Below are positions 6,627 to 60,390 of a stretch of DNA of 64,000 nt, one piece after another. The number at the start of each line of letters is the position of its first letter. Within the stretch, counting starts at the first letter, position 1. Under the pieces are notes generated by a model. The model did no database searches. It was not told the DNA's origin and saw only the letters and a program-made list of their open reading frames with translations. Origin of the DNA: Sporolactobacillus sp. Y61. Its GTDB lineage: Bacteria > Bacillota > Bacilli > Bacillales > Sporolactobacillaceae. The DNA is taken from NCBI RefSeq assembly GCF_040529185.1, contig NZ_CP159510.1:992001-1056000 (forward strand). The letters are read 5' to 3'. The position numbers were made by a program, and so were the translations under genes.

Positions 6627-6707
6627 TTGCCCGATTTATGAAAAAGATGAATCTGCAGGCAGGATCTCCTGTCTGCTTTTTGTATAGGTACTTCCGGAAG
6701 CCGGACA

Positions 6708-7000
6708 GTCGGTCCGAATCCGGAAAAAGTCGGACCGAATCCGGAAAAAGTCGGTCCGAACCACAGAAAAGTCGGACCGAATCTTCGGAAAAAGTTGATC
6801 CGAATCTTCGGAAAAAGTTGGTCCAAATCCGGAAAAAGTTGATCCGAATTCCTGAAAAGTTGATCCCAATCCGGAAAAAGTCGGTCCGAATCACAGAAAA
6901 GTTGGTCCAAATCCGGAAAAAGTCGGTCCGAACCACAGAAAAGTTGGTCCAAATCCGGAAAAAGTCGGTCCGAATCACAGAAAAGTCGGACCGAATCCGG
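6708..7000 (+). repeat. Tandem repeat array A1: 14 units of 21-23 bp upstream of tdk
   Basis: Fourteen head-to-tail units fit the pattern GTYGRWCC, RAAT, a variable 3-5 bases (CCGG, CACA, CTTCGG) and GAAAA. Eleven of the 13 complete units are exactly 21 bp, two are 23 bp, and the last is cut at 16 bp. Most units hold GGWCC or the palindrome CGGWCCG. The array ends 24 bp before the tdk start and leaves no room for an ordinary promoter between them. The 23-bp units break any reading frame, so a protein-coding role is unlikely. The same family recurs as array A2 at 59.9 kb. Confidence 0.9.
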
Positions 7001-22253: not shown

Positions 22254-22682
22254 ATGAGCACTGTGCATACGGAGATCGTCACACCCGCAGGCAAAGTGTA
22301 TGAAGGAGACGTCCACATGGTTTGCGTCCGGTCGGCAAACGGCGACATGGGCATCCTGCCCCATCACATGCCAATTGTCGCACCGCTCCAGATCGCTCTT
22401 GTTCGTCTCAAACACGAAGATGAAAAAATCACAGACTACGCCGCGGTCCATGGTGGCTTCATCCAGGTTAGCCGCGACCGCATCACGATTCTTTCGGAAG
22501 CAGCCGAAATGAAAGATCAGATCGACGTTGAACGTGCCAAAAAGGCTAAGGCTGAAGTCGACGCCGCACTCGACAGACTTCACGAAACCTCAGAAGGTTA
22601 CTATGAAGCCCGTCTGAAACAAAAACGCGCCGAACTTCGCCTGGAAACAGCCGCGATTGATGACACGGTTCCGAAAGTATGA
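22254..22682 (+). CDS. atpC: ATP synthase F1 subunit epsilon
   Basis: Subunit epsilon couples gamma to the c-ring and can inhibit hydrolysis. The 142-residue protein starts TVHTEIVTPAGKVYEGDV and has GDMGILPHHMPIVAPL, then a two-helix C-terminal domain. It is the last atp gene and is closed by a strong terminator. Confidence 0.96.
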   Translation: MSTVHTEIVTPAGKVYEGDVHMVCVRSANGDMGILPHHMPIVAPLQIALVRLKHEDEKITDYAAVHGGFIQVSRDRITILSEAAEMKDQIDVERAKKAKAEVDAALDRLHETSEGYYEARLKQKRAELRLETAAIDDTVPKV

Positions 22683-22690
22683 CGATATCG

Positions 22691-22726
22691 AAAAAAAGGA
22701 AGAGCCAACCGGCTCTTCCTTTTTTG
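22691..22726 (+). terminator. Rho-independent terminator of the atp operon
   Basis: A 10-bp stem AGGAAGAGCC/GGCTCTTCCT with loop AACC is flanked by A and T runs. It can act in both directions. Confidence 0.95.
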
Positions 22727-22770: not shown

Positions 22771-23851
22771 CGGCTGAAAAAATCTGGGAGCGGCTGAAAA
22801 AAGTGGGGACCCGGCTGAAAAGGAGGACCACCCGGCTGAATAAAGTTGAGGACCGGCTGAATTCCGGCCCGCTGGCTGAAAAAATTCGGGAGCGGCTGAA
22901 AAAAGTGGGGATCTGGCTGAAAAAGAGGACCACCCGGCTGAATAATGATGAGCCCCGGCTGAATTCCGATCCGCCGGCTGAAAAAATTCGGGAGCGGCTG
23001 AAAAAAGTGGGGATCTGGCTGAAAAGTGGGACCACCCGGCTGAATTCCGGCTCGCCGGCTGAAAAAATTCGGGAGCGGCTGAAAAAAGTGGAAACTCGGC
23101 TGAAAAGGAGGACCACCCGGCTGAAAAGTGCCGGGACCCGGCTGAATTCCTGTTTGGCGGCTGAATAAATCCAGGAGCGGCTGAAAATAGTGGGGATCTG
23201 GCTGAAAAGTGGGACCACCCGGCTGAAAAGTGCCGGGACCCGGCTGAATTCCGGCCCGCCGGCTGAAAAAATTCGGGAGCGGCTGAAAAAAGTGGGGATC
23301 TGGTTGAAAAGTGGGACCACCCGGCTGAATAATGATGAGCCCCGGCTGAATTCCTGTTTGGCGGCTGAAAAAATTCGGGAGCGGCTGAAAAAAGTGGGGA
23401 TCTGGCTGAAAAGTGGGACCACCCGGCTGAAAAGTGCCGGGACCCGGCTGAATTCCGGCCCGCCGCCTGAAAAAATCCAGGAGCGGCTGAAAAGGAGGAC
23501 CACCCGGCTGAAATAAGTTGAGACCCGGCTGAATTCCGACTCGCCGGCTGAAAAAATTCGGGAGCGGCTGAAAAAAGTGGAAACCTGGCTGAAAAGGAGG
23601 ACCACCCGGCTGAAATAAGTTGAGATCCGGCTGAATTCCGGCCCGCCGGCTGAAAAAATTCGGGAGCGGCTGAAAAAAGTGGGGATCTGGCTGAAAAGGA
23701 GGACCACCCGGCTGAATAATGATGAGCCCCGGCTGAATTCCGGCCCGCCGGCTGAAAAAATTCGGGAGCGGCTGAAAAAAGTGGGGATCTGGCTGAAAAG
23801 TGGGTCAACCCGGCTGAAAAGGAGGACCGCCCGGCTGAATTCCGGCCCGCC
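22771..23851 (+). repeat. Tandem array B: about 53 units of ~20.4 bp with a 102-bp higher-order period
   Basis: Each unit opens with CGGCTGAA (sometimes GGCTGAA) and continues with one of about five endings: TTCCGGCCCGC, AAAAATTCGGGAG, AAAAAGTGGGGATCT, AAGTGGGACCACC, or TAATGATGAGCCC and variants. These types recur in fixed order. The TTCC-type unit starts at 22854, 22956, 23037, 23139, 23241, 23343, 23445, 23526, 23628, 23730 and 23832. The intervals are therefore 102 bp, except two of 81 bp where one 21-bp unit is missing. Such exact higher-order structure implies duplication of 102-bp blocks by unequal crossover or replication slippage. Both minus-strand and partly plus-strand frames are open, but no start with a ribosome-binding site is seen. 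Confidence 0.93.
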
Positions 23852-24110
23852 AGGCCGTAATCCCGTCCATCAACTGAAAAACCCAGCCCTCGCAGAAAAA
23901 TACCACCCCAGGCCAACATTTTTCCCGGTTGATCCAGATCCACAGCTTTCACGCAAGAATCCAGTCCTGCCAAATGTGAACAAAGGTTGAACTGAAAATA
24001 AAATGAACTTTAAAAATGGGAAAAAGGAAAAGGATTTTGTTCTTTCAGGTCGAATCTTGTAAACAGGATCAAACAGGGTCGAATCTTACCTTATAGAAAG
24101 AGGTGAATGT
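23852..24110 (+). other. Gap between array B and the first NERD gene
   Basis: No gene is seen. The decanucleotide GTCGAATCTT occurs twice (24049 and 24078) just before the NERD ribosome-binding site and recalls the GTCGGTCCGAATC core of array A. No clear promoter is identified. Confidence 0.4.
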
Positions 24111-25076
24111 ATGAAGAAACCGTCTGATGAGTTGCCCTACCACGTTCGCCAGCTTCAGGCACTGGTGGACAGATTCACCGGTCCGGCAAAGAAAAAAGAA
24201 GAATTACAGCAACAATTGAATTACTATCTCACTGGACACAGAGGCGAGAGGGAGGTGGATTACCACCTTAGTTATATGCCTCGCGACGACATAGCAATCA
24301 TTAAGAATCTCAGATTGAATGATGGACTTCATCATTTTGAACTTGACCGGATCGTGATTACACCAGGTACCCTTCTGATGCTGGAAGTGAAGCACATTTC
24401 AGGTATAGTAAAAATTCACTCAAAATTACACCAGATGACACGTAAGACGCCCACTGGGGAGCTGCAACGTTTTTCAGATCCGGTCACTCAGGCTGAACGG
24501 CATTATAAGCAGCTGCAGGAATGGTTCCGTTACCGGAAATGGCCGAGTGTCCCTGTTGAAAAACAAATTATTTTCAGTTCCCCGAATGTGATTCTTGACG
24601 TCGAGGATGCCGATGAAAATTTTTTCAAAAACGCATGTCTCATCGAAAGAGTTCCCCAGAGACTCACTGCCCTGACACAAAAACACCCCCAACAGGTATT
24701 CACCCGATCCCAGATGATACGTATGGAAAAAAATTTAAATGATGCGCATGAAAAACTGGTGCAAAATGTATTTGAAGTCTATCATGTTCTCCCAAATCAG
24801 ATTGTAACAGGTGTCCAGTGTCCCAAGTGTGAAAGATATGGCATGATATGGAAAATGGGACAGTGGCACTGTCCCATATGCCATCATCGGTCAAAAACGG
24901 CGCACGCAGAAGCGCTGAAGCATTACGCTCTGTTATTCAAATCGACAATAACAAATCAGGAATGCCGGGCATTCCTGAGAATAGCATCAGAATCGGTTAC
25001 GAGAAAAATGCTGCAAAAAATGAACTTGCCGGCAACTGGCAGTACGAAAGGGACCCTCTATCATCTCCCGACATGA
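24111..25076 (+). CDS. NERD-domain protein with zinc ribbon and C-terminal winged-helix-like region (copy 1)
   Basis: The 321-residue protein has an N-terminal restriction-endonuclease-like NERD domain. The putative metal-binding residues are Asp79 (FELDRIVIT) and Glu92-x-Lys94 (MLEVKHISG). A zinc ribbon follows with Cys237, Cys240, Cys254 and Cys257. The basic C-terminal part resembles a winged helix. It is a paralogue of the gene at 57.3 kb: identical architecture, with the active-site and zinc residues at nearly the same numbers. NERD domains are predicted nucleases, often in DNA-processing proteins. AGAGGTGA precedes the ATG. The 3' end overlaps thiE, on the other strand, by 16 bp. Confidence 0.8.
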   Translation: MKKPSDELPYHVRQLQALVDRFTGPAKKKEELQQQLNYYLTGHRGEREVDYHLSYMPRDDIAIIKNLRLNDGLHHFELDRIVITPGTLLMLEVKHISGIVKIHSKLHQMTRKTPTGELQRFSDPVTQAERHYKQLQEWFRYRKWPSVPVEKQIIFSSPNVILDVEDADENFFKNACLIERVPQRLTALTQKHPQQVFTRSQMIRMEKNLNDAHEKLVQNVFEVYHVLPNQIVTGVQCPKCERYGMIWKMGQWHCPICHHRSKTAHAEALKHYALLFKSTITNQECRAFLRIASESVTRKMLQKMNLPATGSTKGTLYHLPT

Positions 25077-27943: not shown

Positions 27944-27955
27944 TCATCTGATTGA

Positions 27956-28048
27956 AGCATACTTCCCTACGCTGGCATCACCCAGATCAGGTTTAAAGGG
28001 TCAAAGACCTAGTGTCTTACTCTCAGCCGGCCGCCGGCTCCCCTAGTA
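27956..28048 (-). ncRNA. TPP riboswitch (THI element)
   Basis: The minus strand has the conserved core: ACTAGGGGAGCC, GGCTGAGAG, GACCCTTTAAACCTGATCTG, GGTGATGCCAGCGTAGGGAAGT. The adjacent downstream terminator completes an OFF-switch when TPP is bound. A possible -10 TATACT lies just upstream (28044-28049). Confidence 0.96.
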
Positions 28049-28113
28049 TAAGCATGAAATTGTTTACATATAAAACCTAACACAGCTCTTCGGTTTGTGC
28101 AATAGCTTCCTGA

Positions 28114-58356: not shown

Positions 58357-59854
58357 AGAACGTATTTGACTATGTGTAAATGGTAATACTTAACTCTAAA
58401 AGGAGCTGAACCATTTATGCAAAATTATCGCAACTACGGTAACATGACAATTCGTGAACTTGCCAGCCAATGTGAAAGTGTCGACGATGTACAAACAATG
58501 ATTCGTGATTTATTCAAAGAGACCCTTCAAGTGATTTTTGAAGCTGAAATGGACCATCATTTGGGTTACGAGAAGCACGCTTTTGTAGGAAATAATTCTG
58601 GAAACAGCCGCAATGGTTACAGTAAGAAGTCGATCAAATCCAAGTATGGAAACATGGCTCTGGACATTCCAAGAGATCGAAATGGGGCGTTTGAACCCCA
58701 AATTATTAAGAAACATGAGACCGCCCTGAACGGTTTGGATCATCAAATTATTGGCTTGTATGCTAAAGGGATGTCTACCCGCGATATTGAAGATCATATG
58801 CGCGATCTCTATGGGATCAGTGTTTCACCGGCCATGGTGAGTAAGGTTACCGATAAAGTGCTTCCCCTTATCTATGACTGGCATTCTCGTCCCTTAGAGA
58901 AAGTCTACACGATCGTTTATCTGGATGCCATTCACTTCAAAGTGAAGCAAGATCATCGGATTGTGAATAAGGCTGCGTACACCGTACTTGGCATCAATAC
59001 GGAAGGAATGAAAGATATTCTCGGGCTCTGGATTGGTGAAAATGAGAGTGCCAGTTTCTGGCTTAGCGTCTGCAATGACTTGAAAAGCCGAGGTGTCGAA
59101 GACATCCTCATTGCCTGTAAAGACGGGCTTTCCGGCTTCTCCGAAGCCATCAATGCGGCCTTCCCAAAGACGCGCATCCAGCTCTGTGTGATTCACCAGT
59201 TGCGCAACAGTATCAAGTATATATCGACTAAAAATCGCCAGCCTTTTCTCAACGATATTAAAAAAGTCTATAAAGCCTTTACTATTGAACAGGCAGAATT
59301 AGCCTTTGAGGAGGTCAAGAAAAATTGGGCGGATAAATATCCAAGAGTTATTGAATCCTGGGAGACCAACTGGTTAGAACTCACGGCTTATTTTGAGTAT
59401 CCAACTGAAATCAGAAAGATAATCTATACAACCAACACCGTTGAAGGGTTCCACCGTCAACTCAGAAAAGTGACCAAGTCAAAGAATGCTTACCCTACCG
59501 ATGATGCGTTGCGAAAGATTATCTATCTGGCTACGATGGACATCACAAAAAAGTGGACGTTAGCCATTCCAGGATGGTTTGAATGCAGGGCGCAACTCCG
59601 GATCATTTTTGGGGACCGCTTCACGTCCAGTCTCCCAGACAAAGACTTATGACGTTTGAGTTTAACGCTTTAAGTTCTCCTAAAAAAGGGCAGAATAAAA
59701 GAAGAGAGTGATCCTCTCCCCCTTTTTAGCTGAACCCTGACAGGTGCTCGAGTTGCTCTCCAGCAGCGCTCTATCCCCCTGTCAGGTAAGAGCTTTATCA
59801 GTGTGAACCAAACCAAGAAAATTAATCATTTACACAAAACAAATGACATTCCCG
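58357..59854 (+). mobile_element. IS256-family insertion sequence, copy 2 (about 1.5 kb)
   Basis: The left end reads GAACGTATTTGACTATGTG then TAAATG; the right end read inward reads GAATGTCATTTGTTTTGTG then TAAATG, a good imperfect inverted repeat. Flanking octamers TTCTTTTG (58349-58356) and TTCTTTTT (59855-59862) could be a target duplication with one changed base. Ends are approximate to a few bases. It is not a copy of the element at 48.4 kb. Confidence 0.8.
58417..59652 (+). CDS. IS256-family transposase (second type)
   Basis: The 411-residue mutator-type transposase has Asp170 (IVYLDAIHFKVK), Asp236 (LIACKDGLSGF) and Glu343 (TTNTVEGFHRQLRK), with QLCVIHQLRNS between. It is complete with AAAGGAG before the ATG. 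It is of the IS256 group but of a different lineage from the other transposase in the window. Confidence 0.95.
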   Translation: MQNYRNYGNMTIRELASQCESVDDVQTMIRDLFKETLQVIFEAEMDHHLGYEKHAFVGNNSGNSRNGYSKKSIKSKYGNMALDIPRDRNGAFEPQIIKKHETALNGLDHQIIGLYAKGMSTRDIEDHMRDLYGISVSPAMVSKVTDKVLPLIYDWHSRPLEKVYTIVYLDAIHFKVKQDHRIVNKAAYTVLGINTEGMKDILGLWIGENESASFWLSVCNDLKSRGVEDILIACKDGLSGFSEAINAAFPKTRIQLCVIHQLRNSIKYISTKNRQPFLNDIKKVYKAFTIEQAELAFEEVKKNWADKYPRVIESWETNWLELTAYFEYPTEIRKIIYTTNTVEGFHRQLRKVTKSKNAYPTDDALRKIIYLATMDITKKWTLAIPGWFECRAQLRIIFGDRFTSSLPDKDL

Positions 59855-59877
59855 TTCTTTTTTTGATACTCAGGAAA
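59653..59877 (+). other. IS 3' end and gap before array A2
   Basis: The region holds AGAGAGTGATCCTCTCC followed by a T-run, probably the transposase terminator. An inverted pair CCTGACAG (59745) and CTGTCAGG (59780) follows, then the IS right end. No gene is seen. Confidence 0.5.
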
Positions 59878-60390
59878 GTTGGACCGAATCCGAAAAAAGT
59901 CGGTCCAAATCTCAGGAAAGTTGGACCGAATCTCAGGAAAGTCGGTCCAAATTCCGAAAAAGTCGGTCCGAATCCGAAAAAAGTCGGTCCAAATCTCAGG
60001 AAAGTTGGTCCAAATTCCGAAAAAGTCGGTCCGAATCTCAGGAAAGTTGGTCCAAATCCCGGAAAAGTCGGTCCTATAATCATAGAAAAGTCGGTTCAAA
60101 TCTCAGAAAAGTTGATCCGAATCTCTCAGAGAAGTTGATCCGAATCCGAGAAAAGTTGGTCCAAATCACAGGAAAGTTGATCCAAATTCCGAAAAAGTCG
60201 GTCCGAATCCCGAAAAAGTTGGTCCGAACCCGAAAAAAGTCGGTCCTATAATCATAGAAAAGTCGGTCCAAATCCAGGAGAAGTCGGTCCAAATCCTGAA
60301 AAAGTTGGTCCGAACCCGAAAAAAGTTGGTCCGAATACCAGAAAAAGTTGATCCAAATCTCAGAAAAGTCGATCCGAACTCCGAATCCGG
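59878..60390 (+). repeat. Tandem repeat array A2: 24 units of 21-23 bp
   Basis: The units follow the same consensus and orientation as array A1: GTYGRWCC, RAAT, variable 4-5 bases, GAAAA. Most are 21 bp; four are 22-23 bp. Two identical 23-bp variants carry CCTATAATCATAG (60067 and 60239). Units alternate in GTTGG/GTCGG and CCG/CTCAG subtypes without the strict higher order of array B. The array ends 238 bp before spoIIID. Confidence 0.9.

What the first reader, a model, noticed from the sequence alone, without database searches (positions are those of the whole stretch)
22771..23851. Tandem array with an exact 102-bp higher-order period
About 53 units of 20-22 bp are arranged in a fixed order of about five types. 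The TTCC-type unit recurs at intervals of 102, 81, 102, 102, 102, 102, 81, 102, 102 and 102 bp (the 81-bp steps lack one unit). Higher-order repeats of this kind are familiar from eukaryotic satellites and unusual in bacteria. The array sits right after the atp operon terminator.
Basis: seen in the sequence. Interest (0 to 1): 0.8.

Follow-up and report, generated by a model that had tools for sequence, protein, structure and literature searches.

The report
Bacterial satellite DNA with higher-order repeats
A harmless lactic-acid bacterium carries, between genes, long stretches of 21-letter repeats in a fixed five-part order like animal satellite DNA; a short shared word in each repeat is kept almost free of mutations while the rest varies, so the repeats look like a row of docking sites for a protein not yet known.

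Summary
Window 22772-23853 holds 53 units (32 of 21, 11 of 20, 10 of 19 bp) in the order A-B-C-D-E, 102 bp per block, with exactly the reported 102/81-bp steps. The host is a Sporolactobacillus close to THM19-2. A second same-species genome has an array at the same place, and at nine further loci with aligned flanks both carry arrays of different length. I found 17 non-coding ~21-bp arrays in this genome, in two families (cores GGCTGA and AAAGTYGGWCCRAAT). The class is known: the '20-21 nt constant-size, variable-sequence' tandem repeats of Subirana and Messeguer, function unknown. Added here: the higher-order order; a GCTGA core that varies at 0.4% of sites against 10.6% in linkers; and a genus-wide framework GAAAGTTnnACCGAA with species-specific middle letters, found at the same locus (upstream of spoIIID) in ten genus genomes. 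Best reading: rows of protein-docking sites two helical turns apart, with blocks spread by unequal recombination. The protein is not identified. Coding and RNA-hairpin readings fit badly; a selfish-satellite reading and a transcript reading are not excluded.

The parts
22254..22682 (+). atpC, last gene of the atp operon, left neighbour of the array
   Evidence: ORF, Pfam ATP-synt_DE_N
22698..22725 (+). intrinsic terminator of the atp operon
   Evidence: hairpin plus T run read; not reported by the scan
22772..23853 (+). the array: 53 units of 19-21 bp, core GGCTGAA, A-B-C-D-E blocks of 102 bp
22957..23037 (+). first 81-bp step (E to E), D unit missing
23446..23526 (+). second 81-bp step (E to E), B unit missing
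24111..25076 (+). NERD-domain gene, right neighbour, 259 bp after the array
   Evidence: Pfam NERD, gap
6707..7000 (+). family-2 array (AAAGTYGGWCCRAAT) between an rpmE-like gene and thymidine kinase
   Evidence: Pfam TK
59869..60375 (+). family-2 array upstream of a SpoIIID-like gene

Best explanation
This is bacterial satellite DNA: a non-coding intergenic array of the 20-21-nt constant-length class. Its repeats are docking sites for a sequence-specific protein that reads double-stranded DNA. The conserved core (GCTGA followed by A/T) is the contact; the spacing of about two helical turns puts successive cores on nearly the same face, so that many copies can bind side by side and form a local nucleoprotein body between operons (organising or insulating the nucleoid). 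Linkers are free to drift. The 102-bp block is a by-product: unequal recombination or slippage works best in the register of highest identity and so copies blocks of several units. Shown: the array, its order, core conservation, length change between two genomes, related blocks at other loci, recurrence in relatives at the same loci. Inferred: the protein, cooperativity, the nucleoid role, the recombination route.
For: Core GCTGA departs from its cluster consensus at 7 of 1650 sites against 401 of 3777 in linkers (330 units, 19 arrays, two genomes). Spacing stays near 20-21 bp in arrays with unrelated cores. Genus framework GAAAGTTnnACCGAA with species-specific middle letters at orthologous positions and in 14 of 15 genus genomes. 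No covariation in the family-2 palindrome and no RNA fold beyond shuffles (z -0.37) point away from RNA structure. Blocks: lag-5 order; a shared five-unit 102-103-bp block at three other loci; length differences between G000 and G010. Subirana and Messeguer suggest a polymerising protein for this class (PMC8161180).
Against: No binding protein found or searched for. Unit lengths of 16, 19 and 23 bp break strict helical phase. Two families with different cores in one genome need two readers or a broad one. In tandem gene contexts the core follows transcription in 7 of 8 arrays of this genome, which a DNA-only reading does not predict. The core is not enriched outside arrays, so there is no independent sign of a regulator's sites. 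Anchoring units on GCTGA (one mismatch allowed) favours core conservation somewhat: 14 gaps of 37-56 bp and one of 130 bp among 432 intervals could hide lost cores.
Confidence: 0.5

Rival explanations
1. Selfish satellite. The core is where copying or slippage starts (short homology or an unknown nuclease); units with an intact core multiply, which preserves the core without benefit to the host.
For: Arrays change length between two close genomes; related blocks occur at distant loci; no flank similarity that would show a larger mobile element.
Against: Linkers of units within an array differ strongly, so turnover looks slower than mutation, and units with broken cores should then accumulate; they are rare. 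Arrays persist at one locus (upstream of spoIIID) in many species.
Confidence: 0.22
2. Transcript-level function: arrays are transcribed by read-through and act as small RNAs or sponges for a protein or RNA.
For: Core follows transcription in 7 of 8 tandem contexts in this genome. Published RNA-seq shows 52-nt satellites of B. coagulans transcribed (PMC8161180 and PMC8625621, passages).
Against: No fold beyond shuffles in the first 300 nt; no covariation; the array follows a terminator; of 17 arrays 6 are convergent and 3 divergent; S. vineae arrays run against transcription in 3 of 3 tandem contexts (core strand read).
Confidence: 0.15
3. Intrinsically bent DNA: the repeats phase A-tracts, and curvature itself is the function.
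For: Predicted curvature above unit-permuted controls in 17 of 17 arrays of G000, z 7.7 for this array (wedge parameters recalled).
Against: Below control in 3 of 4 S. vineae arrays and in G023, about at control in G024; 31 of 41 above control overall. Curvature does not need a fixed GCTGA.
Confidence: 0.07
4. Neutral minisatellite without function, from slippage alone.
For: Intergenic, variable in length, no gene content.
Against: Core against linker difference; constant period with unrelated units; shared framework across the genus.
Confidence: 0.04
5. Protein-coding repeat (the frame is open on the minus strand for 475 aa, and on the plus strand in pieces).
For: Open frames; my simple gene caller scored three plus-strand frames inside the array (scores 35, 25, 10); 102 and 81 are multiples of three.
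Against: No Pfam match for the minus-strand frame or the first plus-strand frame; the minus-strand frame starts at TTG and runs through the terminator into atpC; sister arrays of the same family have blocks of 41, 79 and 121 bp, which break any frame.
Confidence: 0.02

Closest known systems
20-21-nt constant-size, variable-sequence bacterial tandem repeats (Subirana and Messeguer; IJMS 2021, PMC8161180, parts 1-3 of 5 and passages read; their J Bacteriol 2020 paper is not held and known only from the reference list)
   Same: Period 20-21, non-coding, several families per genome, species-typical units with a short constant signal, length differs between strains
   Different: Here units run in a fixed five-part order, core constraint is measured, and a framework is conserved across a genus at the same loci, whereas the paper stresses no sequence conservation
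52-nt tandem repeats of Bacillus coagulans and others (same authors)
   Same: Constant size, constant short words, partial conservation between strains
   Different: Period 52. One 123-bp stretch of period 52 at 403,485-403,607 in this genome was not followed
Eukaryotic higher-order satellites such as alpha satellite (recalled)
   Same: Monomers diverged from each other, blocks of monomers similar to each other, nested levels
   Different: About 1 kb long, 21-bp monomer, many short arrays between genes, no known centromere role
CRISPR arrays (recalled)
   Same: Constant part and variable part at regular spacing
   Different: Core of 6-13 bp, linker about 11 bp, linkers re-used in blocks, arrays at 17 loci; Cas genes were not searched
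REP/BIME elements of enterobacteria (recalled)
   Same: Intergenic repeats, often at 3' ends, in mosaic arrays
   Different: No palindromic stem in family 1, core not dispersed as single copies; no RAYT search was run
RacA-bound centromere-like sites of Bacillus subtilis (recalled; PMC6593407 seen only as a listing)
   Same: In this genome arrays cluster near the presumed origin
   Different: Described RacA sites are not tandem 21-bp arrays; other Sporolactobacillus genomes carry family 2 on many contigs

Membership tests
20-21-nt constant-size tandem repeats (Subirana and Messeguer) | Repeat length 20-21 nt, at least four repeats | tested here: met
   53 units, mean 20.4 bp
20-21-nt constant-size tandem repeats (Subirana and Messeguer) | At least 60% of repeats of identical length (+/-1 nt), by their program SATFIND | tested here: met
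   43 of 53 units are 20 or 21 bp, counted; SATFIND itself was not run
20-21-nt constant-size tandem repeats (Subirana and Messeguer) | Several families per genome, largely species-typical, with a short constant signal | tested here: met
   Two families in G000; constant cores; different units in other species. Family 2 has a genus-wide framework, more conservation than the definition stresses
20-21-nt constant-size tandem repeats (Subirana and Messeguer) | Not coding for amino-acid repeats | tested here: met
   Block lengths of sister arrays not multiples of three, no Pfam match; against this, my gene caller scored frames inside the array
Higher-order satellite | Fixed order of diverged monomers repeated as a block more similar than the monomers | tested here: met
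   Lag-5 order 0.77; 80% identity at 102 bp against 49% at 21 bp
Higher-order satellite | Spread by unequal recombination | not testable with these tools
   Length differences between G000 and G010 fit it; the route is inferred
CRISPR array | Repeats of about 23-50 bp, unique spacers, nearby cas genes | tested here: not met
   Core 7 bp and re-used linkers; cas genes not searched
REP/BIME | Palindromic stem, dispersed single copies, RAYT transposase | tested here: not met
   Core count outside arrays 285 against 288.5 expected; core not palindromic by reading; RAYT not searched
Origin-proximal anchoring (RacA-like) sites | Sites clustered near the origin and bound by an anchoring protein | tested here: inconclusive
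   9 of 17 arrays lie 115-280 kb from the parS pair, but G006 shows no such clustering and other species carry family 2 on many contigs; binding not testable

The most novel reading that the evidence does not exclude
Sporolactobacillaceae carry a system of chromosomal satellites that a conserved DNA-binding protein coats as extended nucleoprotein bodies, a bacterial counterpart of centromeric or heterochromatic satellite, enriched beside the replication origin in this genome. Protein and 21-bp sites co-evolve in species dialects: the outer letters GAAAGTT...CCGAA stay while the middle letters differ between species but agree within an array. Higher-order repeats arise by the same unequal exchange as in animals.
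Probability: 0.2. Interest if true: 0.85.

Novelty: new member of a known kind. Interest (0 to 1): 0.5.

Why it matters
The 20-21-nt arrays have stood without a function since they were described. This case gives a handle on them: a core under measurable constraint, a genus-wide framework with species dialects, and orthologous loci, so the binding protein can be fished directly with matched controls. It also shows that higher-order satellite structure, usually a eukaryotic theme, arises in a 3.2-Mb bacterial genome, where unequal exchange could be watched in culture.

Tried and rejected
Coding reading: rejected (no Pfam match; sister blocks not multiples of three), although my gene caller scored frames inside the array. 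RNA hairpin: rejected. Mobile-element or leader sequence beside arrays: one 14-bp match at E 0.009 among the flanks compared. Purine-rich sense strand: opposite in THM7-4 and THM7-7, and 72% of 434 ordinary tandem intergenic regions show it anyway. Replication orientation: no rule for family 1 (7 of 11 arrays with a clear arm co-oriented, my count). Origin clustering as a general rule: clear in this genome, not in G006 (three 20-21-bp arrays in 560 kb). Family-wide enrichment over other families: points that way but is weak on the evenly placed stretches (see full report). 'Species-specific core that drifts freely' was my first idea; one search corrected it to a genus framework with dialects. 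Convergent-gene enrichment (6 of 17 in G000, nominal p 0.005; 8 of 34 over all arrays with a known context, p 0.017; background 64 of 637) is weak because my gene caller is simple. Considered and not run: searches for RAYT, RacA and cas genes.

Full report
What is there. Window 22772-23853 is a tandem array of 53 units: 32 of 21 bp, 11 of 20 bp, 10 of 19 bp. 51 units begin exactly with GGCTGAA, two with one change. Typed by the rest, the order is ABCDEABCDEABCEABCDEABCDEABCDEABCDEACDEABCDEABCDEABCCE. One block A20-B21-C21-D21-E19 is 102 bp; the two 81-bp steps lack D and B in turn. The order is far from chance: type identity 0.77 at lag 5 against a maximum of 0.44 in 20,000 shuffles. Base self-identity is 49% at 21, 80% at 102 and 85% at 387 bp, so there is a further level (TRF also lists 102 and 387).

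Where it is. AtpC matches Sporolactobacillus sp. THM19-2 at 99% and 13 other Sporolactobacillus records at 71-80%. The genome is one contig of 3,224,419 bp; the window is 992001-1056000. The array starts 46 bp after the atp terminator and ends 259 bp before a NERD-domain gene.

Not an artefact of one assembly. The same-species genome G010 (its contig of 342,082 bp has the length of the named draft contig of THM19-2, L009) has the array at the same place with 43 units; each genome has 27 distinct units and they share 10. At nine further loci with aligned flanks (280, 329, 982, 998, 1407, 1541, 1558, 2404, 3214 kb) both genomes carry arrays, and the TRF spans differ at all nine (for example 314 against 137 bp, 371 against 678 bp). 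Aligned stretches, which partly include array, are 92.9-99.4% identical. Three more loci are linked by one flank (1058 kb, 85.7%; 1064 kb, 94.9%) or by the spoIIID neighbour (1052 kb). G010 is a draft, so its copy numbers may be collapsed; long reads were not available.

The set in this genome. BLAST, pattern and model searches of G000 plus about 800 kb of stretches and the window give 17 non-coding arrays (one search's list is cut short). Left out: 1213938 (in a called gene), TRF rows near 403 kb (period 52), 499 kb (period 42, in a called gene) and 1935 kb (period 152), and single hits near 1097 and 1492 kb that I did not follow. Family 1 (core GGCTGA then A/T) has 12 loci, family 2 (AAAGTYGGWCCRAAT) five. 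A family-2 model matches both family-2 arrays of the window, but no family-1 array among nine sources searched; its one other hit (E 0.04) lies outside any array. Best TRF periods differ from locus to locus (41, 102, 103, 119, 121, 128, 163, 165, 226 and others), but loci at 280, 1541 and 2404 kb share a five-unit block of 102-103 bp ending in an 18-19-bp GGCTGAATTCC unit, the same size and end unit as the atp block.

Position. Nine of 17 arrays lie within 900-1065 kb; 0 of 20,000 random placements reach that. Two perfect parS sites (consensus recalled) lie at 785.8 and 788.3 kb, so the cluster is about 115-280 kb from the presumed origin. The family searches were whole-genome but seeded from this region, and other families would be seen only in the sampled quarter.

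Constraint on the core. I clustered family-1 units by linker (same length, at most 4 mismatches, clusters of 3 or more) in 19 arrays of two genomes: 330 units. GCTGA departs from the cluster consensus at 7 of 1650 sites (0.4%); the base before it plus GCTGA at 21 of 1980 (1.1%); the three positions after it at 43 of 990 (4.3%); the rest at 401 of 3777 (10.6%) (the test there is nominal because units share ancestry). Units were found by GCTGA with up to one mismatch; 14 gaps of 37-56 bp and one of 130 bp among 432 intervals could hide lost cores. Homogenisation by recombination would act on core and linkers alike. Outside arrays, in the stretches held, GGCTGAA occurs as often as expected (285 against 288.5).

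Relatives, and how strong the contrast is. TRF on 20-kb stretches found 22 arrays of ~21- or ~42-bp period in 1.40 Mb of nine Sporolactobacillaceae genomes, 18 without four in called genes, against 0 in 0.40 Mb from ten genomes of ten other families of the order; arrays of other periods occur in both. The Poisson value (0.002 for 22) overstates the case: in six drafts the stretches came from the contig that carries atpC, and one G000 stretch (L095) was chosen for a known array. On the stretches of G000, G006 and G016 alone (1.30 Mb without L095, with 400 kb more of G006, 140 kb of it around atp and spoIIID) there are 9 arrays, 7 non-coding; 0 in 0.40 Mb then has a chance of about 0.06 to 0.12 (my arithmetic). 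The class also occurs in some Bacillus and is reported as abundant in Paenibacillus (PMC8161180), so no exclusivity is claimed. Units differ between species, while most long arrays show a core and a freer linker (short or very uniform arrays are uninformative).

Same places, related words. Downstream of atpC, 7 of 25 family genomes exceed all 60 resampled controls with a best period of 20-21 (one of 26 had 32 bp only, another 214 bp). Upstream of thymidine kinase, 5 of 15 genus genomes at p 0.02 or less (the other family hits were left out as distant or split). Upstream of spoIIID, 16 of 25 family genomes at p 0.02 or less, 14 of them at 0.01 (G020 left out, G005 partly N). At spoIIID ten genus genomes show the framework GAAAGTTnnACCGAA (14 of 15 genus genomes looked at), with nn mainly GG in G000/G010, AG in G003/G011, GA in G005/G007, CA in G008 and G014 (the latter with C for the following A), CC in G004 and GC in G006; four of those 14 (G001, G002, G009, G013) have other words or no array. 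S. vineae arrays elsewhere (TTCGGGTRAACTT) are the reverse complement of the same framework. A sequence-only model of it matches 14 of 15 genus genomes, with over 100 matches in five and only 2-7 in four. A family-1 model gives 97 and 91 matches in G000 and G010, 51 in S. shoreae (dialect GGCTGGTAAA) and 0-5 in the other twelve. Both searches scored at most 150 candidates per genome, so counts are lower bounds.

What it does. The best reading is a row of protein-docking sites. A constrained core, free linkers, spacing near two helical turns with unrelated words, and dialects shared within a species point to a trans-acting reader of double-stranded DNA. Subirana and Messeguer proposed a protein polymerising on such repeats, or small RNAs (PMC8161180). 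RNA readings are weaker (no fold, z -0.37 for the first 300 nt; no covariation, p 0.31), but in this genome the core follows transcription in 7 of 8 tandem contexts; the exception, 280 kb, has 6.6 kb without called genes on one side. Of 17 arrays 8 are tandem, 6 convergent, 3 divergent. Block structure is best explained by unequal exchange in the register of best match, a classical model for satellites (recalled).

Known or new. The class is known. The fixed higher-order order, the measured constraint, the genus framework with dialects and the conserved loci did not turn up in my searches or in what I saw of three papers by these authors: PMC8161180 (parts 1-3 of 5 and passages), PMC6749651 (part 2 of 5 and a term check), PMC8625621 (passages). 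Their J Bacteriol 2020 paper was not held, so overlap with it cannot be excluded.

Noticed in passing
window 6707-7000 and 59869-60375: Second 21-bp family (AAAGTYGGWCCRAAT), containing the degenerate palindrome TYGGWCCRA; a dialect of a genus-wide framework GAAAGTTnnACCGAA.
   Followed up: yes
upstream of spoIIID in relatives (L195-L219): 20-21-bp arrays upstream of spoIIID in 16 of 25 family genomes tested, ten of them with the same framework and different middle letters.
   Followed up: partly
G000 403485-403607 (L078): Short tandem repeat of period 52, the other constant size of the Subirana-Messeguer class.
   Followed up: no
G016 stretches L117, L118, L119: Arrays of 81-82, 125 and 216-326 bp period, some around GTAACGAGAATACGCTA, in another genus of the family.
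   Followed up: no
G000 1935451-1935905 (L072): Three-copy repeat of period 152.
   Followed up: no
window 22917-22946, 23304-23333, 23691-23720: D-type units create sigma-70-like promoter matches inside the array (three of five in the scanned region, 0.4 expected in shuffles); could give spurious transcription.
   Followed up: no
window 27947-28054, minus strand: TPP riboswitch ahead of what read as thiamine genes (ThiW/ThiM/ThiD/ThiE by recall).
   Followed up: no
window about 58400-59650, left of the 59869 array: Transposase-like gene (IS256-like by recall) between the usual neighbour and the spoIIID-upstream array; a transposase-like gene also sits beside the 948-kb array.
   Followed up: no
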